64,000 nucleotides of DNA from contig NC_089729.1 in assembly GCF_035083965.1 (NCBI RefSeq), positions 2,026,001-2,090,000 on the forward strand. The letters are read 5' to 3'. Below are positions 39,301 to 56,428 of this stretch, in pieces. A program made the translations under genes and the position numbers. The stretch comes from Branchiostoma lanceolatum (lineage: Eukaryota > Chordata > Leptocardii > Amphioxiformes > Branchiostomatidae). The stretch's first letter is position 1. Each line of letters begins with the position of its first letter. The notes below the pieces were generated by a model. That model did no database searches. It was not told the DNA's origin and saw only the letters and a program-made list of their open reading frames with translations.

Positions 39301-42300
39301 AGATACTGGCTCAGGTTAGGCACACCCAGTACTACCTTCTATCAGAATGATTGTTTTTCTCTCAACAATTATGGCACGGACCTCCACAGAAGTTTAGAGC
39401 ATGAAGGGGCAAAACCACTATAGCCCAGAAGGGGGTGGAACCTCTTGCTTTTTACCTTACCATACAAATATTGATGACAAATACCGGCAATTTCTTGGGA
39501 GCTAAGCTTTGCATCTTACTTAAACTATGCGAAATTAAATGCATTTACAGTAAATGTTGTTGTGTCAACATTTCATTTGCAATTATGCACTTTGATGTTT
39601 TTTTCCAGTAAGACTTCTACTAACTTTAAAGTTATAGTAAATGCAATTATTGTATCTAATTCAGAGATTCCTATCAAACTCATTCAATTCGTCATCTTTT
39701 TGGTGTGTGTGAGATTACTGTAGGATGAAGAAGACAAGCAAATTAACCTTCTCCCTGCTGCCTCACTCTGTGACCAATAGAGAATGGGGTGCCAAACGGC
39801 TACGTCAGAGTGCTAAAAGTTAACTGGACTTGTGCATTTAGTATGTTAAGAACACACATGTTTTTACTAATTCTTTGTCCTTAATACAACTTTGTTGTAA
39901 AAAAAACAACTTTATTCTGAGAAATTTGTCTTTCATAAATGAGAAGAATGCAGATGTCTCTGGAGATGCTGCTGTGCTGGGGCAGCCAACATCAGCTGCT
40001 GAGGAAAAGGCACAGGTAAGCAATGTTTGGTAGTCTGTAACATTTTAAAGCGTTGGGAAACATTTGAGAAATCTGTTTCATCTCTCTCTTGGAAACATGG
40101 GGACATTTTATGGAGTTTGGACCAGGATAAGGAACAAAGGTGTTCAATCTTGTTATCCGTTGTTGTAGATGTGCAGGAAGGCAATTAAAACATTGGTGTC
40201 TGAAACGGGTCTGGCCCAGACGCCGCAACGTGTGCAAAAGCTCGCTGAGTTATCATCGCTTGTCATTAAGTCCTGTCCTGGCATTCCACAGAAGGATAAG
40301 GTAAAAGTCGCTGATGGGATTTTTACAAACTGAACGGTTTGACTCCTTACCTACAACTATGACATGACTACTCATTTTATGCTTGCAGCTCTGCAGAAAA
40401 CAGTTATCTATTTGTGCCTATCTTTTTATGTATGGCATGATGCTTTGACTTTATTGTCCTTCATAGATTGTATTTAGGTCGTCCTTTTTCAATTTTAACA
40501 TTTAGCATAGATTTTGCACATCACGCAATTAGCTGATAATATTAATCATTTTGTTATTCTTGAATGAAATGAACAAATTGAACATTTCACTTTGCACTTG
40601 TCCAAGTCTTTTGTCACAAAAGGCTTCTCATCAATTCATTTTTTTACCTAAGATGCATGTAAGTCGCTCTGTTTTTGATAGTGGAAATCTGCCCAAGATG
40701 TCTGCACATTCTGGTTGAGCAAGTCATAAGTATCGAATCTTTCTAGATAAGTCTAATATAAAGCAGACCTTTAACACTTATCAAAGATTTAATATAGTAT
40801 TACTTTCCTATAGGACATGGCCATGAGTGTTCTGAAGTCCGTCACCAGCAAACTGGACCAACTGGACATGTCTGACCCATCGACTGTCGAGTCTGTGGGA
40901 GGACGTAAGTACAATGTCATGTTTATCAGTCACACGGTGCTTCCAGTAATGTATTTTCAAGTTCATTTGACGTGTGTGTGTATACATGTACAATGCAGGA
41001 GAAGTAAACCACCTAAAAGGTGTTTTCAATGATTCAATGGAACGAAGACTTCAAACATGTAAGAAACATTGACACATAACATAAAGAAAGTCATTTAAAG
41101 AATTGAACAAAGTTAAACATAAGAATGTCGGCAAAACATAAGTTTGATGCCAAACTTCAATCTGTAATTCTATCCAGATTTCCAATTTGAACAAAGCATT
41201 GTACATCAAATAAAGTACAACAAAAGGTTATATTGCTTTTTCTGATATTTACATTTCAAGAATATTCTGTATGGTAGTGTACAAGAGAACGGTTACCCTA
41301 TAGAGTACAAATTTTAGTATCTAGGAGCACTGGTGCACCCACAGTCAAAAATTAGGTGCACAGCTCAAATTTTGGGTGCACACAGGTGCACATGCACCCA
41401 CTATTTCGAGCGTTGGGTATATAATTTCATCAATCTTGTCTCATCTATCTCTTAGCCTAACTATTTGACCGTTGAAGCACTACTGTTACAGAAGGTCTGG
41501 CAACCAGTTTTCTCCACCCTTCTATAGGATTTCTGTTTTTCTTAGAGTTTCAGTTAGTATATGATTATATCAATCACTAAAATTTTTAATATCACTTTCA
41601 AATTGATAACATTAATTCTTAATTTTGCTTCTGTTCTACTTCTAAATCAGCTCTGTTGGACTCCGTTGGTTCTCTGCTTGAGGAACCAGAGAGAGATGCA
41701 GAAGAGGTTGATGGGAAGCCTGCACCTGATCTCGAGGAAGACCAGAGTCTCTCTCCAAAGGAGCGCCTTGAAAAGGCAAAACAAAAGGAGCAGGAGAACC
41801 AAGCTGAGGTAACAAAAGTCATGATGCTTTGTGCAATGCTTGACTCAATGTTTAATTTGTAGAGGTTTTTTTCAAGTTAATCTTCCACCCTGGATCATGA
41901 CTCAAATCACACACTTTGGAAGCTGTTCTTCTTTGTTTGATTTTGCATCATGTGTTATTAACACTCTAAAAGGCTTCCGAATCGACTTTGTAATGTAGCA
42001 CCAAAGAAATATTGAACCCTCTGACGGAAACTTTTCAGACCTATGTCCTGATCACAACAAATCCTGACTGTGCTTTACATCATTGTGCATACTAGTTACT
42101 CTTAGTAATACATTTTGTACTTTCTTTAAAAAAATTTTTTAAATTTTTTTCATGCCTATCAATCTTCATTGTTGGTGTCTCTTTTCCAAAAAACAATTTT
42201 CCTCAGAAAAATGTCATACTAAAATTGGCATCCTACACATTGTGTTTGTAGTGTTTCAGGTTATTGAGGAAAAAAATAGATCATCTGAGCAAGACTAACT

Positions 42301-45300
42301 CATCATACTGTCTCCTAACGGTTACTTACAGAAACGAAGACTTGTCCAGGAAAGCCGCCAGGTCCTGGATGGTCTGTACAACGCCATCATCGGCGCCATG
42401 AGGCCAGGAGCCCCGCCGGTAACCATCGAGAGGGGCGGCATCACGCTGCAAGCTCAGACAATCTGGGGCGACCAGTTTGGAGGCCAGGTCTTTCAGACAA
42501 AGAATGGGAGCTTCCATGTTCCGTCTAAAGCAGCGCTCTTAGGAGACTATACACCGCACAGCGTCGCTACTAAGGTATTTGTTTGAACCTTTGTTTATTC
42601 ATGATAAGCTCAAATCGGCGCGCAGGCCGCTTTTCATTGAGGTCATGAGGGAAGAGGTAAGGGTCAGATACAATATAACAGAGATACACAGTCATTTGAG
42701 TCCTAATAACTCTATCAACATATATCATTACATATTTATGGTACAACAAAATACAATTTCTACAACATACAGCATAAAGTAGGGCGAAAGCTGGTTCATG
42801 GTCCGTGTCCGTTCGTTTAGTTCATTTCTGTTACTTCAAGAGTCTCTTAAAGGAAGTCAGATTCGGAGCCGTACATGTGTCATGTCCTGGTTATCAGTGA
42901 TCCGTATTTTTCCCTTCTTATATATCTGTGATGATATCAATCTTGGAGATTGTTTTTAAGATTTATTAAGATTAATTAAGTTAATGAAGTATAAAATTTG
43001 TTATTTTTGCAGTTGACGCAGTTTGAACAGAACCCATTTACCTGGGGGCGCGGGGAGTACCAGGCACGCTCGTCTGTCATGGAACTGTCACTCCAACAGA
43101 ACAACATCCCCGTGGCCTTCAACAACCTGACTGAAGACTTCTACATCACCATTCCGGGCGGCTCCGGAAACAAACCAGCGACAACAACCATCACCTTCGC
43201 TGCCCCAGGAAACAAAAGTTCAAGCTACCATCTGCTGAACCTCACCAACACCGCAGAAGGATTCCTGGTCACCATTACCCCACTGAATAGAAGTGTGGTG
43301 TACGACGTTTCCGGTAGGTACGGCGGTCGCCCTGACGACCAAAACTACAACGTATCCATGGAGACGTATATCCTACCTGAGGAGTGTGCCTTCATGAAGA
43401 CTCTGAGTGGCGATGAAGACACAGAGAAGAGAGAGGCGACAATGTTCATCCCCGGAAAAGATGGTCCTGTGGACTACTACATCAAGGTCCAAATACGTGG
43501 TGAGTATTTTTCATGTTGTTTAATGCTACAAATACAAATTAGGTTAATACATGTTTGTCAGATGAAGGGGGTTGTCTTGTCCATAAAGATATCACTAAAA
43601 CTAATGTAATTGTTTTGTGATATCTTCTCTTTTGTTGTGAAGGAATGTCACTCTGTACTTGAGATTTTAAGCATTGGTATTCTACATGTACATCAGTGTG
43701 ATATAAATGTGAAGTCTCATTCATAGAAAGTGTGCCTAATATTTTCATGAGCCCCTTCCACTGTTGTTTGTATGTTTCTTTCTTTCTTTCTTTGGAATCT
43801 CCATAAGAAAAATACATCATATACTGTCTTGTGATGTTGACAACAGGAGTCACCGGTGATATCCGAGAAGTTGTACACCTCTCAGCTCTGTCATAAACTT
43901 CCTTTTTTTCAGGACCAGTAACCGAATGTGACTTTGAGAAAAGAGCTGACATGAAGGAGTCACACGCCGATGACTTCTACGCCTACCAGATCCAGTGGGC
44001 CCGTTTGAGCTGCGTCTACTGGAGCGAGACCCAGGAAGACTGGAGCACTGACGGCTGCGCGGTGTGTACAGGTTCTCATTGTGTTAGGACAACTTCAATT
44101 TCAGTATTCACAATTGTTACAATTAGTAATAGCTGACAGTGTACTAAACACAATCATACAAAGTAAAAACTTATAATGACTGTTAACCAGTAAAATGTCC
44201 TTGCTTTGGTGTAGAAAACAGCAGATTTTTGTCACATGTTGTTCATAATCTGTACAATAAAAACATGACTGATCTTTTAATTGCAAGGCAGGTACAGTGT
44301 TTGTGTTTGTGTTTGATATTATGGCCCAGCAAAAGTAATTCAAGATTAGCTGATTCATATTCCTGGACAGCTATGTGAGATAGATAGTTACACATGTTTG
44401 TTATTTCTGAGTAATGATTAGGTTCATATAACTGTTCAAAAAGAGTGTCTTGACCAGAGGGACAAAATGTATTCAGGCCACTCCTTCTGATGTTATGCCA
44501 GGGACTAAATGTTTGACAATGGGGACGGCCTTTTTGGTCCATGGTCTACATGCATTTTCAATCAATCATGATATTATCTAAAGCAGTAAAAATTCTTATA
44601 ATGATAACTTTATACAGAGCTAGAAATTCAATGATAGCTTGTTTGTTTCTTTGTGTTTTTGTTTTGATATAAAGTGACCAGTGTTTGAATTAGCAAAATC
44701 TGATAACAACATGTTTCTTTACTGCTTTCCACAGATAAGCAAGCAGTCCACCATTTCCAGCACCATCTGTCACTGCAACCATCTGACGGCCTTCGGAAGT
44801 GACTTCGCCACACCGCCAAACACGTTTGACTTCATGGATTTTGATTTTAGTGATTTTGTGGACAACGGTGCCATTGTGGCAGCCATCATTGTGGCGCTCT
44901 GTCTCTACTCGTTCACAGCATCCATTATCAAGATCGCTGAGAGTAGAGGAAAAAGGATGGTAAGTATAGTCATCATCAATCAATCATATCATATCATGCC
45001 AATAGAAGTGACGAATGTGTAATGGTTATTTGTAGTCATTGAATCTTTACTCTGTGTGCTTTTTATTTCTTAATGGATAATTATTCTAGTACATTTTTAT
45101 CCAGTATTTTGATATGAATTTTGCTTGATTACTAGATTGATTTGTTTGGCAATGACAGACACACAGCCAGGGCTGCCCAACTAGCCAATGGCTATCAGAA
45201 AGGGCTAGCCCTGCTGACAAGGACAGGGTGTGTACTTGAACAAAGAAGATTTGTTATAAACCAATTCAAGTAGTATGCATATTTGCAACATGCCTGCAAC

Positions 45301-48300
45301 CTGCAGTATCTTTTACAATATATTCAGCTTTATCATATATTATTAGTAAATGATAATATAGTATCTACTGTGAGAGGTCAGGGTCAGCAATATACTATGT
45401 GAACATTCATGTTCTAATAATAATATTGTCTTCACACATTGTTACAGTTACATCACGCTGTGAAGTTGGACAACCTTCAGAACGGCTACCTGTACCGCCT
45501 GCTCATCTGGACAGGGGCAGCTAAGCATGCTGGGACAGAGTCCACCGTGTCCTTCAAGCTGTTCGGAGCTGCAGCAAACTCCGATCTGCTAGTGGTCGAC
45601 ATCACAGAGAAGGTTGGACATCAAATTTGGCACTGACTCAACTCCTAATAACAATTTCATCACCCGACTTTCCCCTGAAGATGTTTTTTGACTACAATCC
45701 TCAATGGCAGGCCCTAACATGTGGAATTTTTGTTGTTGTTTAGGTTTTCACCCAGAACAGCCAGGTGACCCTGACCTTCAGCACAGCAGAACAGCTGGGT
45801 AACGTGGAGCTGCTGCAGCTCATGCACGACAACAGTGGGGAGGGGGGCCGTGCATCGTGGAACGTGGACAGAGCAGCAGTGCAGGATCTCACCACAGGCA
45901 AACTGTGAGTTCACTCAAGATTTCCTTGGCTGTCTAGATTTATCCAATCAATCTATCCCGCAGCTTAGTTTATAATACTGTTTACACACCATGTAGAGTA
46001 GCTTTGCTGTACTTGATGTTTAGAACATGAATTTGAATGTCCTTTGTGGAGAGAAACTTGATAATTAGTCAACCTCCAATTGCCGACCTTTGAAAAAATA
46101 TGAGGTGTGTTTCTATTGTTTTTTTGTTTCAGAACCTGACAGCTAACAGTGAGACTGATATTATTTTTCCTTTTATGGAACTACAGGTTCTATTTCTTCT
46201 GCAGCGAGTGGCTGGCAGCCGACCGCGGGGACGGGCAGGTGGTGAAGACCTTTCCTGTCGCCACTGAGCAGGACCTGCGATCCTTCGGGTTCCTGTTCCC
46301 GGCAAGTCTGCGGAGTAATCTGGCAGAAGAACACCTCTTCCTGTCCGTCGCTATCATGCCTGAAGGTAACATTAGTTTTGCTTCCTTAAGTTTTACCATA
46401 AATACTACAGTTACTGTTACAATAATTATCATAGCTGCAATGAATTTTATGTAGTTTTTATGTCTTGTGTTTGTAAGTTTTATGTCCAGGAAGATTGGCT
46501 GCTTACAAATCTTGTATGTTAGCTAATGAACTTAAAAAAAGTATATCCAGAGTATCTACATGTAAACTTTATCTTTATCATAGTAGACCCCAGGGAGTCC
46601 ATATCACTCTGAAATGTCACTGATAGTTACTGTAACGGTTACTGTAGTTGTGTTTTATATGGATGAATGCCTCTTGCTGGCTGTATTTGATCAAGTATGT
46701 TGCTCTCATTCTTTATTATTAACTTGTTTTGATGAAAATGTCCCCATTATGTTTCCTTTACAGATAGCGCGTTCACCCGCAGCGAGAGGCTCGGCTGCTG
46801 CCTGAGTCTCCTCCTCATGTCCATGGTGTCCAGCGCCATGTGGCTGAGGGAAGAAATAGGAACCCAGGTTGTGCAGGCCATCAGCCTGGGGCCGTTCTCC
46901 TTCACCCTGAATGGAGTCTACACGGGGGTCATTACAAGCATTACCTGCCTCCCTGTCATCATGGCCATAGTCCTGCTGTTCCAGTACAGCCGACCCAGCA
47001 ACAAGGGCGACCGGAGGGTCCGAGATGTGGAGACGGGCGGCCCAGCTGAGGCACCCACCCAGCAAGGACCAGCCAAGGGCCTGCCGCACTGGTGCAAGTA
47101 CGTGGCCTGGGTGCTGGTGGTGCTGTCTGCTGTGGGGTCAGCTGTCTTCACCGCGCTGTACAGTCTGGACTGGGGCAAGGACAAGTCCGAAAGGTGGCTG
47201 TCTGCGTACTTCATCACCTTTTTGGTGGACATGTTCCTCCTGCAACCCGCAAAGGTATTGATATGCTCTTTATTGAATTGTCTACTTAATAAGTAGGTAT
47301 TATAGGATATCATTGTTACAGTAAGCATAATATCATTACATGTTTGTTGCAGTTGCCTTCTTTTATGTTATATAAAACACCTTGAAGTGCCACCTGTCAC
47401 TACCATCCATGCACAATGTTGTTTGATAATCACGGTGACCTGACTTCCTCAGAACATGCTATATTCAAGCCACATCCTAAGGATCATATTGCCATTGTCA
47501 GTTATTGTTCCATTTGTGCTCAACTGCTCATAAATATTAAACAATGTGTTCAGAAATCCTTACAACCAATGCTTTTATCTTGCAGATATTGCTTCTCACG
47601 TTCTTGACTTCATCCATTCGCAAGCCGCAAGCCGTGAAGAAGATTTATGAAGAGAAACGGGGCCCCGTTTCCATTGATGCCAGGACAGTGTCTTCACAAA
47701 AGGCACGCTTCAGCTGTAAGTTTTAGCACACATGTTTGTAGAAAACAGCATTACATATCATACTACCATGAAGATGTAAACTATGCACATGATACTACAT
47801 AGTGTATGACTTTTTGTTTGGAAACTGTTTGTTAGGCCACACCAATTTAATTTTTGGGTTAACAGATTTTTTTGGGTGAAATTTTAGCACGAGGACATCA
47901 TGAAAACAGAAGGCTGGGGTGAAAACTTGCACCTGACCCGTTCACTCCCTGAAACTGTGTGCACCAAAGTACAGACTTTCCTCTGAAATTCTGTTTTCAT
48001 GTTTATTTTCCAATCTAGCATTTTTTTGGAGATTCTGTTAAACAAGAAGTTAAATTGGTGTGGCCTTAGATGGTGAAAGAAAGCTATTTTGTGCAGTGTG
48101 AGTGTGCTCCCAACCAGACACAAGTTCCAGACCCTGTTTTGTGTACTGACATTTCCTCTTGCTTCAGTTTGTTAGTCCAGTTATCCGGGTGGTGGGCTTA
48201 AGTTTTCACTTTTCTAACAATACATAATCATACATATATGTGACTGAATTGATATTTTTCATGCATACTATAGCCAATGCATTTCGCATGAAGAGGAAGA

Positions 48301-51300
48301 TGGAACGTCTTTCGATGACATCCCTTGCCAACATCAAACAAGCGAGAATGAGGCAGCGCAGGGACAGGAGAGTTGTGAACACCTTTTGGGACATCATGTG
48401 GTTCTGCTGTTGCCTCCTGATTGTCATCAGCATTTCTAACGAGCACCACAACACCACAGAGGGTTTCTATCAGACACAGAGCATGACCAACACCTTTGTG
48501 CAGTCGATGGACGAGGTAAGTTCATTATGCTACATGTACATGTCGATCCTTGCTTGGGAAGGTCTCTATATCTTTGTACAGTATCTGATCACTATAATCA
48601 TAAATCACTGCATTGTTGAGACAAAATGTTACCTTTTAAGTCATTGGAAGGCCTTAATGCTGACATAATCAAGACTATGCATGATGTACAAAATGAATAA
48701 TAAACTAGTGGACGTACCAACTAATAAGTATCTAATACCAGCTCAGAAAAGGACAAAAAATAGCCATGCCTTTAAGTATATCAGACTTATCAACCTGGGA
48801 TTGATGTGTTAAAAAATTTGTATTTTCCTAGAACGATGGTAGAATGGAACTCGTTGCCACCAAGTACCGTAGAAGCATCCTCATTAGACAGGTTTAAACA
48901 ATGCATGCAGTTAGATATGCGAAGGTTAGACGTGACAGGTGTAGTATAACCAGCTGCTGCCATGCCGAAGGGCGGTTATACCGGCTATATAGATACATAT
49001 ACACTTAGCTTCTCAGATGGTGATTAGAACATGAATTCAGTGTGCACAGTTTGAATTTGTAATGAGAAATCTCTAAGGACAATTGTTATTTCTTAGTACA
49101 ACTATATCACAAGGCTTTATTTCTCCACAGGTAAATGATCCTCTAACCTTCTGGTCCTGGCTGTACGAGACCGCTCTGGGGAACTTCTACCCGGAGACTT
49201 CCTACAAAGGTGACAAGCCCCGCTGGCAGGACAAGAGCTTCACGGCTGACATGCAGTCGGTCCTGGTCTACCCACCTAGCCTGATCCAAGGTCGAGTTCA
49301 GACAGGTTCGAGGAACTACTTTCTGGGATCACTAAGTCTTGCTTTGAGCTTACATGCTACAAATGTAATTTCACATGCATTATTACCATACCAGGGGACA
49401 CACATTGAAAACTTAGATTCCAGAAATTCAAAGAATAATCATTCAGGAAATATCTACTTTCAAAAACCTAAAAGTGAAGGGAATACCAAAATAGCATTGG
49501 ACTGACTTTTCATGTTTCCTTCTCCTGTCATCCTAGGGCTGTGCACAGTGCCTGTGACAATGCAGCACTTATTTGACGAATGTTCATCAGCGTATGATGA
49601 ACACACCAAGGAGACCGGGGCGTTTGAGAAGGGATGGAAAAGGGTCAGGAATACATCAGCGATGGAATCAGAAGCCCCTGGATGGATCCACCTCCCCAGC
49701 GCCTACCCCAGTCTCCCCATCTACGGTGTGACCACGCAGTACTGGGGAGACGGCTTCGGTCTTCACCTGGGAAAATCAGCAGACGAGATGCGCAGCGTCC
49801 TAGCAGAGCTGAAGGCCCACCATTGGATCGACAAGCGCACAAGGGTCATCTTCTTGGAAGCCGTGCTCTACAACGGAAACCTGGATCTGTTCACATCGGT
49901 GACGATGGTGTTTGAATTCTCCGAGACGGCCGGAGTTTTCTCCCATCATCACGTGCACACCTTCCGACTTCATCAACGGCCAGGGACGATCGGGTACATC
50001 TACGTCCTGCTGGAAATCATTTACGTCATCATTCTCCTCTACACACTGTGGACAGAGGGGAAAGCTGCACGCGCAGCCGGCTTGGCCTACCTGATGGAGC
50101 CATGGAATATTGTAGAAATATTCAACTTCATCTTGGCATTCACCGTCATTGTCTTGTACGGCTTTAAGATAATGTACAGCTCCAAGGCTCTGATGGCGAT
50201 CAAGGAAGGGAAAGGTGTGTGACACATTTGTGCTAAAATGTTACACTAATTACACAAAAATGTCACTTCAACATGCTCAATATTTGAAAACAACTTTGCA
50301 AAAGCTCTGACTGTATTAGGTTAATATTATTCAACACTGTACTTTTATTAATGATATGCATTACACTTCTTTCAAAGATCTAGTCCACCATTTCCGATCT
50401 GCTGTGAACATCAGCTTGGTGTATGGCTGGTTTCTGGCCTTCCTGACGTTTGTCAACATGATGAAGCTCCTCCGGCTGGTGAGGTTCAACCCATTCCTCT
50501 CCAAGCTGATGTCCGTGTTCCGAGGGATGGCGGGGGAGTTCTGTTCCTTCATCTTCTACTTCTTCTTCTGGCTCTCAGCTTTCGGCGTCTACGCTTATCT
50601 CATGTTCGGCCTTAGTGTGACAGAGTACAGGTAAGGAAATATGTTGTTCTATTTGTGTGAAATCTTTTAGGTTAAAAAAAATTCAATTTGATGATTTCTT
50701 CTTTTTTTTACAAAAGTTCTTGAACGTAGAATAGTTCAGGTCACCTTTACAATCATATGATAAATTTTGACAATTCTTTCTTCTTTTTCAGCACCATCAG
50801 CAAGTCCTTCTCCACACTGTTCCAGATGTCTCTTGGAAATTTTTACTATTATCAGCTCAAGGAGGCCGCTCCTATTCTTGGCCCTATCTACTTCTTCGCT
50901 TTCATTTCCTTAATCTTCCTCGTGCTGATGAACATCGCCATGGCGATCATCGACAGCGCTCTTCCGGATGTGCGGAACCACGACATGCCTGAAGAGGACC
51001 AGTACTTCATCCAGGGGTTGTGGGAACGCTTCACAGCCTTCTTCGGCTTCTTGAAAGTGCCAGTCACAGGTAGCGTTGTATCATTTCACAGATAGACAGT
51101 GCACATCCAACCAAGGATGTCTATCATCTCTTGGGTCTTGACTCTGTTGTTTCTGTGGCTACTGACATATGTACTTTATTACTGCAACATTACTGTTGTA
51201 AGCTTTCTTGTTGGCAATGCATTTTAGTATTTAAAGTGTGGATTTGGGACCTGAACCAGGACCTTTGCTCCATAACTGAGCTATACCGCGAGTATGACAG

Positions 51301-52812
51301 GATGGGCAGCAGTAAGGTCCAAAGTTAATTCCTGTCCTGTCTTTAGAACCACCCCCCTTAAGCCCCTTTGTTTCCTCTGCCTCTTGCCAGCTGGGCTTGA
51401 CTGTTTTTGTACATCATTGTTGTTATTGGATGATTAAATTTTGTTTGTTTCATATGGAAATATACAATAAAGAAAACTTACTAAAGACATTTGCAATATC
51501 AACCCAGATGATGACTCCATGGCCATTCTTCATGACAGCCTGATCGGCGTGGAGATTAAAGTGGAGAAACTGTGGCTGAAGAGAGAGTCGCTCTTCAATC
51601 TCAAGTAAGTACATCTTACAAGAAATACTGCTTGAGCCTGATGCCCTTGAATGTGTGTGAAATGATCTTCCAGCTACTGTATGCTTTACAGCTACAGTAA
51701 CTGTAATTGTGATTAGAAAGAATAGACTGAAAAGTTGAAAATGATAATTGTTGAAAATAAACACTCAACATATAGGCCTGAGAGGTTCTAAGAAACACCA
51801 ACATTTCTATCCTGACAGGATGAAGGATGCGGACCTCCCCACAGGGCCTGAGTTTGTCCCGACTGTCAAAGACCTTCCCGCGCTTCCCGAACAAGTGATC
51901 CGCTCTGAGAACAGGGCGCCAGTGGTGGTGGCATCAAAATTGGAGGACACCCCAGAAAACCATCAAACCAAACAAGTCGTAAAAATAAAGTCCATCCTTT
52001 CCAAGGGGGGAAAAAGTGACAAGAAGTCAACCAGGAAAGTTTCTTTCGCTCTGGCTGTCCTTGTTCGTCACACTGAGGAGTATAAGGTGGAGTGGCCAAG
52101 TGTCAAGATGAACGCTCGTAACGAGGTGGCTCTGACATACCTCCAGATGCTGACAGACGACCACATCCAGGCTGCCCAGATGCTGCTCCGCCGCCAGTAC
52201 CCGGCACTCCAAGGGCTGGAGGGGCCTGCAGTCGGTCTCTGTGACGATGGGTTTGTGAAGATGACAGGAAAGGGGCTTCAAATCCACCACAACAATCATC
52301 AGCACTGGGTTCTGTCGTCTTACACAGACGGAAAGGTGTGCCTGTATGACAGCCTCAGTGTCCCCATGACCCCATCTCTGCAGATCCAGCTTTACCAGTC
52401 CTATGCCGCGTTTGCTGATCAAACAAGGAACACCCTGACCGTCTTCTTACCGAACGTACAGCGTCAGAAGAACGTCTCGGATTGTGGGCTGTTCGCCATC
52501 GCCTGGGCGGTAGACATCGCAGAGGGGCAAGACGTGAGCAGGGTTTTGTATGACAACAGGAAGATGAGGAGCCATTTGAAGACGTGCTTCAAACAAGGGA
52601 ACCTCACACCATTTCCACTTCTGTCTAGCAACAGAAAGAATGAAGGTCAAACCAAGAAACACCAAATCAAGCTGGTCTGCCACTGCGAGCAGGGGGAGCG
52701 TCTGGGAAGGATGGAGACTTGCAAGGCATGCGGGAGGATGTTGCACGTCAACTGCCTGCCATTCAGCCCTCCCTGTGACGGCACATGGGTATGTGGAGAC
52801 TGCGCTGTGTAA
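14596..52812 (+). CDS. PKD1L2-like: Polycystin-1-like receptor-channel with SUEL lectin N-terminus and Ulp1-PHD C-terminus (41 exons, full length)
   Basis: I joined 41 exons: 14596-14659, 16632-16910, 23595-23814, 25334-25596, 25818-25922, 26379-26498, 26846-26971, 27992-28211, 29350-29612, 30906-31085, 32644-32863, 33486-33745, 34468-34572, 34958-35095, 35695-35817, 36474-36575, 36813-37088, 37585-37800, 38112-38198, 38706-38761, 39234-39314, 39947-40015, 40169-40300, 40814-40904, 41651-41808, 42332-42574, 43013-43499, 43913-44061, 44735-44959, 45448-45612, 45744-45904, 46187-46365, 46764-47254, 47586-47715, 48274-48515, 49131-49305, 49537-50214, 50378-50630, 50792-51069, 51508-51604, 51819-52812. 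All borders are GT/AG, all phases agree, and the sum is 8901 nt (2966 aa). The N-terminal SUEL lectin, GPS, PLAT and channel order is closest to PKD1L2 among vertebrate polycystins; no REJ, LRR or PKD repeats were seen. It is expected to be a surface 11-TM protein, probably pairing with a PKD2-type subunit. The least certain exon is 39947-40015 (weak acceptor); extra exons in the 6.7-kb second intron cannot be excluded. Confidence 0.85.
15267..15512. mobile_element. MITE copy 2 (GTGCGTATAT family) in intron 1
   Basis: GGCCCTGTCACAATTGTGCG at the left is inverted as CGCACAAGTGTGACAGGGGC at the right. The internal order matches 1054-1290, including the TAACCTAAACCAAAA stretch. Confidence 0.75.
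15656..16260. repeat. 'gggccccct' repeat family member in intron 1
   Basis: It opens with the short palindrome tctccatgaaaaatggagat and a TG-rich run, then the gatggattacaatgatattt, gggccccctggtatgtgacc and gggccccctagcagcttgtt landmarks. It ends in AATTAATG/TTTGCAT modules like those of family B, suggesting B and this family are related. Confidence 0.7.
17145..17550 (+). repeat. SINE-like dispersed element
   Basis: It carries gggaaaggcactcagttaca, caggtgaaaatgagtatcta, gggacgtccctcggatagg, gtgtttgaggagagccacac and a 3' part reaching gccactggctgcgaagagag. These landmarks recur in the SINEs near 23010, 23935 and 33255 (inverted), and the 3' part at 3310 (inverted). Confidence 0.65.
18308..18790 (-). 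pseudogene. 5'-truncated LINE inserted in a TG microsatellite
   Basis: The minus-strand frame (18790 to 18408) encodes [20 protein letters not shown] followed by C, the C-x2-C...H...C tail after a non-LTR reverse transcriptase, and runs to a stop near 18408. Downstream on the minus strand come AATAAAGATTT and an A17 tract (T run at 18310-18326), i.e. poly(A) signal and tail. Both sides are flanked by (TG)n, as expected if the element landed in, and duplicated part of, a microsatellite. Confidence 0.75.
18798..19000. repeat. (TG)n/(TGTGAG)n microsatellite
   Basis: Long alternating TG with TTTG, GAGTG and a CGCGCGCG core. Reading frames through it give only HTHT repeats. Confidence 0.9.
19323..20423 (-). 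mobile_element. TIR DNA element family A, copy 2 (complete, ~1.1 kb)
   Basis: The left terminus ATGTAACGTTGGGTAACATA is repeated exactly in inverse at the right end (to 20423), extending 26 bp, then with a gap into GGATTTTTCGA. The reverse complement of 19690-20423 matches copy 1 at 3603-4337. No transposase ORF is visible. Flanking target duplication is not clear. Confidence 0.8.
21052..21160. repeat. (GAAT)n microsatellite
   Basis: Roughly 27 copies of AATG, with three AACG variants near the right end. It may be the tail of an older LINE. Confidence 0.95.
21475..22645 (-). mobile_element. Family B non-autonomous element, copy 2
   Basis: Reverse-complement counterpart of 6810-7985, matching almost end to end with small indels such as an extra CATGTA near 21710. 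It lies in intron 2 of the polycystin-like gene, in opposite orientation to copy 1. Confidence 0.8.
22824..22999. mobile_element. Perfect palindromic element with 9-bp target duplication
   Basis: Arms 22834-22908 and 22916-22990 are perfect reverse complements over 75 bp, with a 7-nt loop (TCCATAG). The direct repeats AAATTTCCT at 22824-22832 and 22991-22999 flank it. A 9-bp duplication is usual for Mutator-like elements. It is non-coding. Confidence 0.9.
23010..23125 (+). repeat. SINE fragment
   Basis: It contains gaaatgagtacctagtctat, catgtcccttggatagg, gtgtttgaggaaagccac and agtacccaccacac, the same landmarks in the same order as the element at 17145-17550. Confidence 0.55.
23595..25596 (+). 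CDS. Exons 3-4: unrecognised ~160-residue module, copy 1
   Basis: Exon 23595-23814 encodes [40 protein letters not shown] and [14 protein letters not shown]. Exon 25334-25596 encodes [37 protein letters not shown] and [16 protein letters not shown]. Residues about 115-275. I do not recognise the fold. It is secreted-side, has conserved cysteines (WCRDY, LCAE, GCGE, RC, GC, SC, WC, VC) and a [11 protein letters not shown] end. The same split (phase 1 in, phase 2 inside, phase 1 out) occurs in copies 2 and 3, so the module moves as a symmetric phase 1-1 cassette. Confidence 0.75.
23930..24320 (+). repeat. tRNA-derived SINE
   Basis: A head with box A-like ggctcagattagtcagaacg and box B GGGTTCGAATCATGG is followed by the shared body (gtgcccatggtaaaagcac, gagtacctagcttcggttag, gtgtttgaggggagccacac). 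Confidence 0.65.
24774..25116. repeat. (TCAC)n microsatellite
   Basis: About 340 bp of TCAC repeats with GACAC interruptions at roughly 60-80-bp steps, a higher-order pattern. On the minus strand it directly follows the SINE remnant at 25117-25270 and probably began as that SINE's tail. Confidence 0.95.
25117..25270 (-). repeat. SINE 3' part
   Basis: On the minus strand, gatgatggggaaaagaag and aaaccggata correspond to the end of the SINE at 30430-30730 (gatgatggggaacaaaagac, aaactggata), whose tail is also a simple repeat. Confidence 0.55.
25818..26971 (+). CDS. Exons 5-7: three EGF-like modules
   Basis: 25818-25922 (residues 276-310) has only four cysteines ([12 protein letters not shown]...CSCRPGF...HGC), lacking the first and third EGF cysteines. 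26379-26498 ([14 protein letters not shown]...) and 26846-26971 ([14 protein letters not shown]...) have the full six and the C-x-C-x2-GF(x)L-x4-HGC end typical of the fibrillin/LRP-type EGF. Each is a single phase 1-1 exon, which permits shuffling. Confidence 0.85.
26025..26346 (+). repeat. tRNA-derived SINE
   Basis: Box A-like tagcttaattggtagcaccc and box B GGTTCAAATCCCGGGAC lie in tRNA-like order. The body has gtgtttgaggagagcctcta and ends in a GAACGAATGAACAA tail. Confidence 0.7.
27160..27310 (-). mobile_element. LINE 3' end fragment
   Basis: 'tgagtttattgagatacccttt', 'ctagggggctaatcttccagg' and 'tacattgtacatcac' follow the pattern of short LINE 3' ends seen at 5640 and 61430 (minus-strand AATAAAC near the end). 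No coding part remains. Confidence 0.35.
27992..29612 (+). CDS. Exons 8-9: unrecognised module, copy 2
   Basis: Exons 27992-28211 and 29350-29612 (residues 393-553) repeat copy 1 at high identity. The divergent spots are [27 protein letters not shown] and [17 protein letters not shown]. Exon lengths (220 and 263 nt) are identical to copy 1. The intervening intron holds a (GTGA)n tract. Confidence 0.75.
28478..28558. repeat. (GTGA)n microsatellite
   Basis: About 20 units with one TAAG interruption, in the intron inside module copy 2. Confidence 0.95.
30420..30760 (+). repeat. tRNA-derived SINE with (GA)n tail
   Basis: The head has box A-like tggcacagtggcagagcatc and box B GGTTCAATCCCCAG. The body has gtgcccttgggaaaggcac, and the end gatgatggggaacaaaagac aaactggata is followed by (GA)n. 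Confidence 0.75.
30906..31085 (+). CDS. Exon 10: Sushi/CCP domain
   Basis: Residues 554-613 show the four-cysteine CCP pattern: [40 protein letters not shown]. It is a single exon of 180 nt, phase 1-1, placed between module copies 2 and 3. Confidence 0.92.
31203..31657. mobile_element. Foldback/MITE in intron 10
   Basis: ACAGGAACACGCTGTGACGA with the following CCGTCCCAGGGTGC at the left is inverted at 31624-31657 (gcaccctgggacggctgtca, then tggcatgttcctgt) with a few mismatches. Inner arms continue less well. It is non-coding. Confidence 0.65.
32644..33745 (+). CDS. Exons 11-12: unrecognised module, copy 3
   Basis: Exons 32644-32863 and 33486-33745 (residues 614-773). It is one codon shorter than the others in the second exon. 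It differs most at [26 protein letters not shown] and [19 protein letters not shown]. The intron between its exons carries (GTGA)n and an inverted SINE. Confidence 0.75.
33117..33260. repeat. (GTGA)n microsatellite
   Basis: A tetranucleotide run changing to GAGGGAGT variants at its right end, next to a SINE. Confidence 0.95.
33262..33452 (-). repeat. tRNA-derived SINE, inverted
   Basis: Read on the minus strand, the head ggtgcaatggtaagaacatt and box B GGTTCAATCCCGGG precede gtgcccttgagaaaggcact and gaaaatgagtacctagcttc. Confidence 0.7.
33953..34145. mobile_element. MITE fragment (GGCCACACCAATTT family)
   Basis: It starts with TAAGGCCACACCAATTTTAT, the terminus of the elements at 47836 and 57300. 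The rest differs and no matching right end is seen. Confidence 0.45.
34468..36575 (+). CDS. Exons 13-16: four EGF-like modules
   Basis: 34468-34572 is nearly identical to exon 5, including its four-cysteine form, so the pair 'module + this EGF' was probably duplicated together. 34958-35095 ([16 protein letters not shown]...[11 protein letters not shown]) is a calcium-binding-type EGF. 35695-35817 ([14 protein letters not shown]...CQCRQGFVL) is a standard six-cysteine EGF. 36474-36575 ([19 protein letters not shown]) is cysteine-rich and closest to a laminin/Delta-like type. All are phase 1-1, residues 774-929. Confidence 0.82.
35145..35445 (-). repeat. tRNA-derived SINE, inverted
   Basis: On the minus strand, gtggtgtagtggtctgcgct (box A-like) and GGTTCAAGCCCCGGG (box B) are separated by a tRNA-like distance, followed by a body reaching gccctatacacc. 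Confidence 0.65.
35921..36262. repeat. 'gggccccct' repeat family member in intron 15
   Basis: It carries tctccatgaaaaatggaaat, the TG-rich run, gatggattacaatgatattt, gggccccctggtatgtgacc and gggccccctag, as at 1738 and 15656. Confidence 0.75.
36813..37088 (+). CDS. Exon 17: fibronectin type III domain
   Basis: Residues 930-1021 are a complete FN3: [20 protein letters not shown] at the A/B strands with the conserved W, EGYRVVVS at strand C, and [18 protein letters not shown] at strands E-F with the LxPxTxY motif. One phase 1-1 exon. Confidence 0.92.
37585..38761 (+). CDS. Exons 18-20: Thr/Pro/Ala mucin-like stalk
   Basis: 37585-37800 holds repeated TTTPAPAAT units (a 27-nt repeat, about four copies), then Ser/Thr-rich sequence. 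38112-38198 repeats the [16 protein letters not shown] theme, and 38706-38761 closes the linker and switches to phase 0. Residues 1022-1141 are likely heavily O-glycosylated and act as a spacer between the adhesive modules and the GAIN region. Confidence 0.8.
38367..38531. repeat. Near-perfect 165-bp hairpin in intron 19
   Basis: The left arm from TTGATCTCTAAAAAGAACAT through gggactatgtacataattat is inverted to 38531, interrupted only by small bulges; the apical region is around attacggtaaatg. It could be a MITE or a long RNA hairpin. Confidence 0.75.
39234..42574 (+). CDS. Exons 21-26: helical linker before the GAIN/GPS
   Basis: Exons 39234-39314, 39947-40015, 40169-40300, 40814-40904, 41651-41808 and 42332-42574 encode residues 1142-1399. 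They are rich in helix-forming segments ([69 protein letters not shown]) and end with [20 protein letters not shown], typical of the helical subdomain that precedes the beta-rich GAIN fold in polycystin-1-like proteins. The exon at 39947 has a weak acceptor (GAGAAG/AATGCA), chosen because it alone keeps phase 0. Confidence 0.75.
43013..44959 (+). CDS. Exons 27-29: GAIN beta region, GPS cleavage motif and TM1
   Basis: 43013-43499 begins [14 protein letters not shown] and continues as beta-rich sequence. 43913-44061 encodes [18 protein letters not shown] and 44735-44959 encodes [14 protein letters not shown]. Together these give the GPS pattern C-x2-W...W-x3-GC...C-x-C-x-HLTxFG. Predicted autocleavage is between L1628 and T1629 in HLT. 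The hydrophobic [20 protein letters not shown] (about 1655-1674) is TM1, followed by a basic KIAESRGKR stop. Confidence 0.92.
45448..46365 (+). CDS. Exons 30-32: PLAT/LH2 domain
   Basis: Residues 1687-1854. [20 protein letters not shown] matches the PLAT start (Y-x-V-x-TG...AGT-S). [37 protein letters not shown] and a tryptophan (RASWNVD) strand follow. [16 protein letters not shown] gives the closing FxCxxWLA-D-GDG motif seen in polycystin-1 PLATs. It lies between TM1 and TM2 on the cytosolic side and is a lipid/protein-binding domain. Confidence 0.92.
46764..48515 (+). CDS. Exons 33-35: transmembrane segments 2-6 region
   Basis: 46764-47254 opens with [20 protein letters not shown], the usual polycystin-1 TM2 entry, then a TM around [19 protein letters not shown], a basic, proline-rich cytosolic loop, [20 protein letters not shown], and [20 protein letters not shown]. 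47586-47715 continues [15 protein letters not shown] and a charged loop. 48274-48515 has a basic RMRQRRDRR helix and [18 protein letters not shown], leading into the polycystin domain. Confidence 0.88.
47836..48067. mobile_element. MITE with GGCCACACCAATTTAA termini and TTA duplication
   Basis: GGCCACACCAATTTAA at the left and TTAAATTGGTGTGGCC at the right are inverted, flanked by TTA on both sides. Internal landmarks (gaggacatcatgaaaacaga, gtgtgcaccaaagtaca) match the reverse complement of 57300-57535. It lies in intron 34. Confidence 0.85.
48676..48960 (+). pseudogene. LINE ORF2 C-terminal tail in intron 35
   Basis: [19 protein letters not shown] then, after a frameshift near 48812, [20 protein letters not shown] and [10 protein letters not shown] give the familiar tail of non-LTR elements (sFFPRT-xEWNxLP...SxxxFKxxL), ending in TAA at about 48947. 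It is intronic and dead. Confidence 0.8.
49131..50214 (+). CDS. Exons 36-37: polycystin (TOP) extracellular domain and TM7-8
   Basis: [20 protein letters not shown] opens the domain; [40 protein letters not shown] and [20 protein letters not shown] are its conserved strands (WID-x-TR-x2-F-E...YN). TM segments follow at [19 protein letters not shown] and [19 protein letters not shown]. In known polycystins this domain caps the channel and drives subunit assembly. Confidence 0.93.
50378..51604 (+). CDS. Exons 38-40: polycystin cation-channel TMs, pore and tail start
   Basis: 50378-50630 covers [20 protein letters not shown] (S4-like, weakly basic) and [20 protein letters not shown] (S5). 50792-51069 has the pore-helix-like [17 protein letters not shown], then [20 protein letters not shown] (S6). 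The S6 end and the [14 protein letters not shown] region resemble polycystin family channels. 51508-51604 is a short charged, coiled-coil-like segment ([19 protein letters not shown]) whose phase 2 end joins the last exon. Confidence 0.92.
51819..52812 (+). CDS. Exon 41: polycystin tail fused in frame to Ulp1-type cysteine protease and PHD finger
   Basis: The exon is a single 331-codon open stretch (residues 2636-2966) with a strong acceptor (CTATCCTGACAG) in the phase demanded by exon 40. Residues 2637-2715 form a basic, disordered linker. A C48-family domain follows: the catalytic His 2798 ([11 protein letters not shown]), Asp 2813 (VCLYDSLS), Gln 2852 and Cys 2858 ([13 protein letters not shown]) are all present with Ulp1 spacing (Gln to Cys six residues). 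[18 protein letters not shown] resembles the end of Ulp1-like ORFs linked to invertebrate transposons. A PHD-type zinc finger closes the protein, with ligands C2923, C2925, C2937, C2940, H2945, C2948, C2961 and C2964 (C4HC3). Members of C48 cleave SUMO or related proteins; PHD fingers usually read histone tails. What either does on a membrane channel is unknown. There is no intron inside the fused part. Confidence 0.88.
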
Positions 52813-54760
52813 AAAAAGTCTTCACTGCAGCTTAGAGAGGACTGTACTGATTGAAATTCAAAATCAAGCATAACTGAATGTTCTCCTGACGGAAGTAACG
52901 AAACAAATTTAAAGCACTCTAGGATGGGAACTGATCGGAACACCATAACTGTTCAATTTGTTTTGGTGTGTGATTTAGTATTGTGTGTGTCTATTTATTC
53001 TTATTTATTAATATTAGGGATTAAGTCTAGGATCTATAAAGTTTTAAAAGACTTTGTTAGTAAATTTGCCTTCTTTAAATTGTACAGAATCTTAATCAAT
53101 ACTTTTATTATTAAGTTGAATAATGTATTTATAATGTTACAAATTTAATGTCTTTGAAACATTTTCAAAGTCCAAAATAGCAAGAACTTTCAGAACTTGT
53201 TTTGTTGTATTTTTGGCTGCAGTCAAAAAGGCAGTTTTGCTTAACAAAGAAACTATTATTATAGTTTACTAAATCACAATGAATATGTTATTTGTGTCAT
53301 AAGATTTTGGCCATGAAGAAAAATTACTGCTTGTAAATATTGCGTGTGCTTAATCAGAATTGCCTGAAAGCTTGTTGAGAAGAGGAAATCAGCATTAAAT
53401 AAATATTTTGTAACATCATGTAATAACAGGCCAAAAATTTCTTAAAACACCAAAAGAAAAATGTTTCCATTTGGAGTCTCATATCAGTTCAGTTTACACT
53501 TTAAACTGGCCTACTCAGAAGAAAAGGAGGGCCGGTTATTGCTCACAGGATTAGTAAACAAACTAGTCTAAGTTTTTAACATTACCATCATCAAAATTTT
53601 GTCATTAAAAGTAGAAAATATTTTGGGGAAAAAATCAGAAAAAAAGTTCCTCTGGACTGCCTAGAATTGCAGTTTTGGCTGTTCTGTTTGTGCTTTTAAG
53701 ACAAAGAAAACTAATAACAATCAATATGTTTATGTTCAAGGACATTGTATAATGCCCTTGATATGTCGCTTGTGTCACTTTATGATATTTGGTCTGGTCA
53801 TCATCATCGTTCCTCCTCTTATATACGAGGTGCAGCAGTTGGTCAGGTAAATGCTTGTAAATAAGAGTAGACGTTTGAAAAAATCTGCACGAAAGTACAA
53901 ATTTGTAACATCATCTGAACTATTTTTAAAGACTGATGGAAAAGTTCCATATACATTCAGGTACCGTTACACTTCAAAATGGCCTGCTCAGAAGAAACAG
54001 AAGACGCTGCTGTTGAATTATTTTCAGGATTAGTCTGTCAACAACTTGACTAAGTTTTCGAAAACATTATCATACAAAAATTTTGTCAAAGGTAGAAAAC
54101 ATTTTGAGGAAATTAGAAAAATTCCTATAAATTTCTGACTGCCTAGAATGGCAGTTTTGGCTGTTATGTTTGCTTTTAAAACAAAGGAAACTAAATAACG
54201 ATGATTATTCACACGTCGAAGGACATTATATAATGTCACTTTAAAAGATTTTGGTCAGGTAGAAAAACTACTGCTTGTAAATATTGCTTGCGCTTGATTT
54301 AATTGCACGAAAGCTTGTAGAGTAGAAGCATTAAAAAATCAGCAAAATTATACAAAATTTGTCATCTGATAACAAACTAAAAATCGTTTAAAAGACCAAA
54401 AGAAAAGTCGCCATTTAAAGTATCCTATCAATTCAGGTTACATTTCTAAATGGCCTGCTCAAAAGAAGAAAGAAGGCTGTTACATTTATTTTTAGGATTA
54501 TTAACATGTCAACAAACATGTCCATTTTTTTGGACAAATGTTATCATATCGAAAATTATCAAATCGCAAAAAATATCACAAGAAAACATTTTGGGCGAAA
54601 TGAGAAAAAGGTTTTTCTGGAAACTAAAACACTACTTCAAAATGACTATAATTATGGTTTCCTACCTTGTAAATTCTACAGAGAAATATCTGTCAACGTT
54701 TTGATTTGAATAAAACTTGATTGATTTGCTGATTCGAATGTGTCTTTCTTCTTTATTTAT
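52813..54760 (+). other. 3' UTR / downstream region with three diverged ~470-bp repeats
   Basis: The sets gaaaa(gt)ttccat..., cctgctcagaagaaa..., aggatta and ctgcttgtaaatattgc...gaaagcttgt recur around 53340-53560, 53930-54310 and 54395-54500, strongly diverged. AATAAA occurs at 53398 and 54709; the second is followed by GTGTCTTTCTTCTTT, a good downstream element. No coding signal. Confidence 0.55.
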
Positions 54761-56180: not shown

Positions 56181-56428
56181 ACAGTTTCATACCCTGGGCG
56201 CCAGACACCGTATATCGGCGCGCCACCGAGCACCGCACGCGCGCCCAAGCTTTCCCGACCCACCCACCAAGCTCGTATTCGGCGAGCGGTGCTTGGGTTT
56301 ACAGCGGAGGGTGGGCCGGGGTCGGTCTTCGGGGGCAGCGGGAGGGTGGGCCGGGAGAGCTTCGGCGCGCGTGCAGTGCTCGGTGGCGCGTCGATATACA
56401 GTGTCTGGCGCCCAGGGTAACAGTTTCA
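56181..56428. mobile_element. GC-rich MITE with 9-bp target duplication
   Basis: ACAGTTTCA at 56181-56189 and 56420-56428 flanks termini TACCCTGGGCGCCAGACACC / GGTGTCTGGCGCCCAGGGTA-like (one mismatch), with inverted homology extending about 56 bp (ATATCGGCGCGCCACCGAGC). The GC-rich centre opens chance ORFs. Confidence 0.88.

What the first reader, a model, noticed from the sequence alone, without database searches (positions are those of the whole stretch)
51819..52812. Ulp1/SENP-type protease plus PHD finger fused in frame to a polycystin channel C-terminus
The exon that begins as the cytosolic tail of a polycystin-1-like channel continues without stop or intron through a complete C48 domain (His 2798, Asp 2813, Gln 2852, Cys 2858) and a full C4HC3 PHD finger. 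Phase and acceptor fit exon 40 exactly. Ulp1-PHD ORFs of this style occur in invertebrate DNA-transposon contexts (established for several superfamilies), so the simplest reading is that a transposon ORF landed in the last exon and was captured. A membrane-tethered, possibly active SUMO-protease with a chromatin-reader finger on an ion channel would be a new arrangement; release of the tail by proteolysis, as known for polycystin-1, would give it a route to the nucleus.
Basis: partly seen in the sequence, partly recalled or inferred. Interest (0 to 1): 0.93.

Follow-up and report, generated by a model that had tools for sequence, protein, structure and literature searches.

The report
Polycystin channel fused to SUMO-protease module
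In lancelets (amphioxus), a family of large polycystin-type channel proteins carries an intact-looking SUMO-protease domain plus a zinc finger at its cytoplasmic end, a combination conserved in several species and not described in any paper found here.

The parts
35691..51604 (+). 25 exons of a polycystin-1-like gene upstream of the fused exon (from EGF/FN3 ectodomain through GPS, PLAT, polycystin domain, channel and a coil-like segment)
   Evidence: Projected from B. lanceolatum P0012; all 25 junctions GT-AG (the script only accepted GT-AG and stop-free junctions), one frame, no internal stop, 93% identity to P0012 over 2096 aligned columns. Domains by Pfam on P0012. Exons further 5' (from about 23588) exist but were not modelled.
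49131..51069 (+). Polycystin (TOP) domain and S1-S6 channel exons: 49131-49305, 49537-50214, 50378-50630, 50792-51069
   Evidence: Pfam Polycystin_dom 7.9e-28, PKD_channel 4.2e-10, Ion_trans 1.2e-5 on single ORFs; splice sites
51508..51604 (+). Exon encoding the post-S6 coil-like segment ([32 protein letters not shown]); 'coil-like' by eye
   Evidence: the same segment precedes the module in P0002, P0003 and P0005
51819..52812 (+). Last coding exon: polycystin tail motif, linker, C48 protease, PHD finger, stop
   Evidence: homologues, full-length fusions
51819..51879 (+). Conserved start of the tail ([18 protein letters not shown]), also present in two models without the module (P0020, P0025)
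   Evidence: first 20 residues 80% identical, then blocks to residue 100 at 41-59%
51880..52089 (+). Fast-evolving, gap-rich, low-confidence linker
   Evidence: (tree length 6.85 for exon residues 1-106); block pLDDT 35-48 over residues 1-90
52090..52611 (+). Ulp1/SENP-type (C48) domain; His 52303, Asp 52348, Gln 52465, Cys 52483 (first base of codon)
52672..52806 (+). PHD finger, C4HC3, ligands from 52678 to 52803
   Evidence: eight ligands in 27 of 27 modules; profile matches to PHD structures; weak but consistent fold matches
53398..53403 (+). First AATAAA after the stop: possible polyadenylation signal
   Evidence: pattern search only

Best explanation
The gene encodes a polycystin-1-like receptor/channel (EGF, FN3, GPS, PLAT, polycystin domain, channel) whose cytoplasmic tail is a flexible linker, a Ulp1/SENP-type cysteine protease domain and a PHD-type zinc finger. 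SHOWN: the in-frame fusion, its intact frame, its presence in many Branchiostoma paralogues across several species, conservation of catalytic and zinc-binding residues, and protease evolution as slow as the channel's. INFERRED: the module joined one ancestral channel gene before the sampled Branchiostoma species diverged and was then co-duplicated with it; it came from a SWIM-C48-PHD protein of the kind linked to Mutator or Ginger transposons; the protein is a channel-enzyme that removes SUMO (or a related ubiquitin-like protein) from itself, its channel partner or nearby proteins, with the PHD finger as a docking or folding element. Local action at the membrane is the most likely mode (about 0.5), nuclear action after release of the tail less so (about 0.15).
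For: Splicing and open frame. Same fusion in 19 of 30 long polycystin proteins; also partial models P0002, P0003, P0005. Tetrad 26 of 27, zinc ligands 27 of 27. Rates on one topology: channel 1.97, C48 2.00, PHD 3.29, spacer 4.27, linker 6.85; per-site identity C48 above linker, p = 9e-13, C48 against channel p = 0.49 (the test ignores phylogeny). Channel and module trees share their main groups. Fold; profile matches to Ulp1/SENP1 and PHD structures. Precedent for SUMO control of polycystin channels: SUMO-PKD2 surface abundance, passages of review PMC11506562.
Against: No RNA, protein or enzyme evidence; the fused proteins are database records, by their names mostly gene-model predictions. 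dN/dS could not be run, as DNA of other species is not held. One B. belcheri model (P0035) has Ser for the catalytic Cys. Eleven of 30 retrieved rows lack the module (two of these have its first residues only); many end early beside fused siblings, so truncated models are likely but real short isoforms are not excluded. Pfam scores lie below curated cut-offs in the window and in the amphioxus proteins scanned. YopJ-type acetyltransferase, another family of similar cysteine chemistry, also scores weakly (13.3-13.9 bits), and in alignment A3 more members match it (9 of 42) than C48 (6 of 42) at E 0.01. The SUMO preference is a guess: NEDP1 (NEDD8) and ubiquitin-acting relatives score close to SENPs.
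Confidence: 0.72

Rival explanations
1. The protease-PHD module is expressed as its own protein, from a start at the first ATG of the exon (51820) with its own promoter, and the channel usually ends earlier.
For: P0001, P0004 and P0006 are deposited as separate proteins starting at this Met. P0015, P0034 and P0038 end at the end of the channel exon with VTG, as if reading into the intron.
Against: The splice junction and phase are kept in P0002, P0003, P0005 and the 19 full-length fused models. The first 20 residues of the exon are conserved (80%) and also occur joined to the coil segment in two models without the module (P0020, P0025). Single-exon predictions often start at the first Met of an exon (my judgement).
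Confidence: 0.12
2. The module is translated as part of the channel but works as a binding platform (SUMO or other partner capture, scaffolding) rather than as an enzyme.
For: One paralogue has lost the catalytic Cys while keeping the other tetrad residues and all zinc ligands (P0035). Conservation alone does not prove catalysis.
Against: 26 of 27 modules keep all four catalytic residues while the linker beside them changes freely.
Confidence: 0.2
3. The tail is cut off and travels to the nucleus, where the protease and the PHD finger act on chromatin.
For: Soluble polycystin-1 C-terminal fragments reach nucleus or mitochondria in mammalian cells (PMC10502374, passages). A Lys/Arg-rich stretch lies in the window's linker (by eye).
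Against: The linker is the least conserved part, so no conserved cleavage or import signal is seen. A simple NLS-like pattern matched 7 of 26 linkers, not the window's. The PHD lacks the cage-type aromatics that most of its relatives have.
Confidence: 0.13
4. Assembly or annotation artefact, or a recent transposon insertion in decay.
For: Module relatives resemble proteins associated with mobile elements.
Against: 19 fused models in Branchiostoma records from several sources (ncbi, uniref, eukprot), trees sharing their main groups, slow protease evolution, no stop in the window model. No convincing terminal repeats around the module.
Confidence: 0.02

Closest known systems
Polycystin-1 family (PKD1L2/PKD1L3/PKD1-like)
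   Same: GPS, PLAT, polycystin domain and PKD channel by Pfam on the closely similar P0012; database names PKD1L3 and polycystin-1-like protein 2
   Different: The one non-amphioxus polycystin retrieved, fish P0041, has no module; known polycystin tails carry no protease (recalled)
SENP/Ulp1/NEDP1 cysteine proteases (peptidase family C48)
   Different: 15-18% identity to these rows; fused to a channel and followed by a PHD finger; below Pfam's cut-off
SWIM-C48-PHD proteins (P0008, P0010, P0042 and kin)
   Same: Closest sequence relatives of the module outside amphioxus: 31-38% over the matched part, 20-32% in the alignment; same C48-PHD order where the PHD is present
   Different: Often a SWIM finger instead of a channel (25 of 42 members of A3; Pfam finds none in P0008); many have Glu where amphioxus has the catalytic Asp; 11 of 16 keep a Tyr and a Trp in the PHD that amphioxus lacks
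Ginger1 and Mutator transposases with Ulp1 and PHD domains (PMC2836005)
   Same: The paper lists Ginger1-9_HM as 'Ulp1, PHD' and says hydra and lancelet Mutator elements encode Ulp1 (passages)
   Different: No transposase domain or terminal repeats here; PMC6446971 could not confirm MULE transposases in B. floridae (passages)
Channel-enzymes such as TRPM2 and TRPM7 (recalled)
   Same: Ion channel with an enzyme domain at the C-terminus
   Different: Those carry a hydrolase-like or kinase domain, not a SUMO-type protease, and are not polycystins

Membership tests
Polycystin-1-like channels | Polycystin (TOP) domain plus PKD channel domain | tested here: met
   Window ORFs: Polycystin_dom 7.9e-28, PKD_channel 4.2e-10
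Polycystin-1-like channels | GPS and PLAT upstream of the channel | tested here: met
   P0012, 93% identical to the window model: GPS 7.7e-11, PLAT 3.8e-12; window model keeps [11 protein letters not shown] at the GPS. The window's own exons were not scanned for these two domains.
Peptidase C48 (Ulp1/SENP) | His-Asp-Gln-Cys catalytic set | tested here: met
   26 of 27 modules incl. the window
Peptidase C48 (Ulp1/SENP) | C48 fold | tested here: met
Peptidase C48 (Ulp1/SENP) | Score above the curated Pfam cut-off | tested here: not met
   18.2-18.8 bits against 20.7; the distant relative P0008 passes with 22.8. Fold and residues argue that this is divergence.
Peptidase C48 (Ulp1/SENP) | Cleavage of SUMO or another ubiquitin-like protein | not testable with these tools
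   needs purified protein
YopJ-type acetyltransferase (Pfam Acetyltransf_14) | Score above the curated Pfam cut-off | tested here: not met
   13.3-13.9 bits against 24.4; 9 of 42 members of A3 match at E 0.01, best 0.002
PHD finger | C4HC3 zinc ligands in order | tested here: met
   27 of 27 modules
PHD finger | PHD fold | tested here: inconclusive
   PHD-alone model pLDDT 65.9; nearly all of the 50 listed matches are PHD-containing entries, but best E is 0.18
PHD finger, H3K4me3-reading type | Cage aromatics (recalled: aromatic before the first Cys, Trp before the ligand His) | tested here: not met
   Val or Ile before Cys287 and no Trp before His309 in all 7 amphioxus rows of A3; Tyr plus Trp in 11 of 16 relatives with an aligned PHD (P0053, aligned out of register, left out)
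Mutator/Ginger transposon copy | Transposase domain and terminal inverted repeats around the module | tested here: not met
   Inverted pairs whose arms flank the module are 20 nt at 75% (51472/53147) and 15 nt at 87% (51472/54045), taken as chance; no transposase family in the Pfam scan of the exon at E 1

The most novel reading that the evidence does not exclude
A genus-wide family of polycystin channel-enzymes: a mechanically or ligand-sensitive GPS/PLAT channel whose tail is an active SUMO-type protease of transposon origin, turning a membrane stimulus directly into removal of a ubiquitin-like modifier from the channel complex or, after tail release, from other targets.
Probability: 0.4. 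Interest if true: 0.92.

Novelty: new variant of a known kind. Interest (0 to 1): 0.8.

Why it matters
If the protease is active, this would be a channel that carries its own SUMO protease, a direct link between polycystin signalling and SUMO control. SUMOylation is reported to set the surface abundance of PKD2 in arterial muscle (review PMC11506562, passages), and here evolution may have placed the eraser in the same polypeptide. It also looks like a durable domestication of a mobile-element-associated protease, kept through repeated duplication of a host receptor family. Automated annotation misses it: the precomputed Pfam lists of the 19 fused proteins name neither domain, and both score below Pfam cut-offs where scanned, so these proteins are named simply PKD1L3, polycystin-1-like 2 or uncharacterized.

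Tried and rejected
Whole-genome copy search: no genome is held for the window. dN/dS: not possible without other species' DNA; replaced by protein-level rate contrasts. A conserved PP1-docking (RVxF) motif looked tempting in the window's linker (KVSF), but only 11 of 26 linkers match the pattern at all, some at another place (P0007 left out for lack of a linker). A consistent nuclear import motif: pattern in 7 of 26 linkers. Terminal inverted repeats around the module: only short, imperfect pairs. Module relatives with flanking DNA in viral contigs: 23 pattern matches, none confirmed. The third protein search scored only the 7995 candidates sharing most words and lengths up to about 1000 aa, so a full MULE-SWIM-C48-PHD transposase would have been missed; the transposon origin therefore stays a literature-based inference. 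Of its 60 listed hits, 33 (P0010 and 32 new ones) went into alignment A3, and some of those have no residue at the catalytic columns (P0088, P0090, P0097, P0098, P0100). Fusions outside Branchiostoma were not exhaustively sought: one search was limited to short proteins, selected by the channel and by length.

Literature: ten searches. No listed title or abstract start described a polycystin with a Ulp1/SENP or PHD domain. Passages were read in four papers (PMC2836005, PMC6446971, PMC11506562, PMC10502374); the rest were seen as listings only. This covers only the open-licence library searched.

Full report
WHAT IS THERE. The ORF runs to a TAA at 52810-52812. A canonical acceptor at 51819 and donor after 51604 join it in phase to the channel exons. 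Using B. lanceolatum protein P0012 as guide, 26 exons from 35691 to 52812 give an open frame of 2069 aa; all 25 introns are GT-AG, and the product is 93% identical to P0012 over 2096 aligned columns. The guide was used to choose splice sites, and only GT-AG, stop-free junctions were accepted, so this shows that an intact model exists, not that it is transcribed. The channel part is identical to P0012 over 494 columns, so the window is most likely B. lanceolatum, an allele or a very close paralogue of that locus. The linker differs: P0012 has 27 residues more there (133 against 106).

NOT ONE GENE BUT A FAMILY. The exon alone finds seven Branchiostoma proteins among 10 hits; P0002 and P0005 already join channel segments and module, and P0003 joins the coil segment to it. 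A search with the channel exons returned 30 proteins at E <= 1e-20, 29 of them Branchiostoma and one fish. Nineteen of the 30 end in the complete module: B. lanceolatum 6, B. floridae 1, floridae x japonicum 2, floridae x belcheri 7, B. belcheri 3. Two more (P0020, P0025) have only the first residues of the exon. Nine have none of it: P0015, P0034, P0037 and P0038 stop at or within a few residues of the end of the last channel exon, P0036 adds 36 unrelated residues there, P0039 stops within the channel, P0024 and P0040 continue into a septin domain, and the fish protein has its own tail. In the channel tree (30 rows; P0040 dropped as too short) rows without the module sit among fused ones, for example P0038 beside P0035. 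The module tree recovers the same main groups, with weak support for its deepest split and some reshuffling among close paralogues. The simplest history is one fusion followed by co-duplication, with many short rows being truncated models; real loss or short isoforms are not excluded. Hybrid-genome records may include alleles or orthologues of each other, so rows are not fully independent.

SELECTION. Over 27 modules (the window, 19 fusions, P0001-P0007), 26 keep His-Asp-Gln-Cys; P0035 has Ser for Cys. All 27 keep the eight PHD ligands. Over the window and 19 fusions, mean pairwise identity is 0.781 in the channel, 0.779 in C48, 0.712 in the PHD, 0.585 in the spacer and 0.567 in the linker; gaps are 0.1% in C48 and 18% in the linker. 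Tree lengths on one topology are channel 1.97, C48 2.00, PHD 3.29, spacer 4.27, linker 6.85. Invariant columns: 63 of 162 in C48, 12 of 43 in PHD, 7 of 106 in the linker. A decaying insert would not keep its catalytic core as tightly as the channel while the flanking part of the same exon drifts. The PHD is less constrained than the protease. This is a protein-level argument; dN/dS could not be run.

ORIGIN. Outside amphioxus the nearest relatives are P0008 (Crassostrea virginica), P0009 and P0010, and a wider set of mostly unnamed proteins (60 listed). 25 of the 42 members of alignment A3 carry a SWIM finger, while only 6 match C48 and 9 the YopJ-type family at E 0.01; the shared layout is SWIM-C48-PHD. 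Several 90%-identity clusters hold 20 to 51 members, as mobile elements might. Pairwise matches to P0009, P0008 and P0010 start at window 52102-52150, and the profile alignment becomes clear from about exon residue 88, marking the likely join near 52080-52150. In print, Ginger1-9_HM is listed with 'Ulp1, PHD', and Mutator elements of hydra and lancelet are said to encode Ulp1 (PMC2836005, passages); SWIM fingers are listed for many MULE groups, though that survey could not confirm MULE transposases in B. floridae (PMC6446971, passages). Capture from such an element is therefore likely but not shown; no convincing terminal repeats remain.

HOW IT MAY WORK. Cytosolic tail, flexible linker, conserved protease and zinc finger suggest an enzyme held at the membrane by the channel. 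SUMO-modified PKD2 is the form said to be activated by pressure and kept at the cell surface (PMC11506562, passages), so a polycystin with its own deSUMOylase could set the surface level or state of its complex. NEDD8 or ubiquitin as the true substrate is not excluded. Release to the nucleus has a mammalian precedent for polycystin-1 tails (PMC10502374, passages), but here the linker shows no conserved signal, and the PHD has Val or Ile and no Trp at positions where 11 of 16 relatives with an aligned PHD have Tyr and Trp. That these positions form a methyl-lysine cage is recalled knowledge.

NOVELTY. The sequences are in databases under channel names; the module is not annotated in the precomputed Pfam lists. 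Ten literature searches listed no paper describing it. It is a new variant of the known idea of a channel with a C-terminal enzyme, in a family for which I know of no such case.

Noticed in passing
window 23588-23815, 27991-28212, 32643-32864 and 25317-25598, 29348-29614, 33493-33747: Three tandem copies of an N-terminal exon pair of the polycystin-like gene (66-85% identical to P0012), possibly alternative N-termini or duplicated gene starts.
   Followed up: partly
window 53300-54700: Two to three diverged direct repeats at about 475 bp spacing downstream of the stop codon.
   Followed up: no
window 56190-56419: Inverted repeat with 79-nt arms, 91% complementary, 72 nt apart: looks like a small MITE-type element.
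   Followed up: no
window 37594-37707: Coding minisatellite, 27-bp unit, 4.2 copies, giving a Thr/Pro/Ala-rich ectodomain stretch; P0013 starts with a much longer one.
   Followed up: no
P0024 (B. belcheri), P0040 (B. floridae): Two polycystin models run into a septin domain (PF00735) after the coil segment; a neighbouring gene joined by annotation or a second kind of tail fusion.
   Followed up: no
P0015, P0034, P0038: Models ending in VTG at the end of the last channel exon, as if the next intron were read: possible short isoforms without the module.
   Followed up: partly
P0035 (B. belcheri): The one fused paralogue with Ser in place of the catalytic Cys: a natural candidate for a dead-enzyme member.
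   Followed up: no
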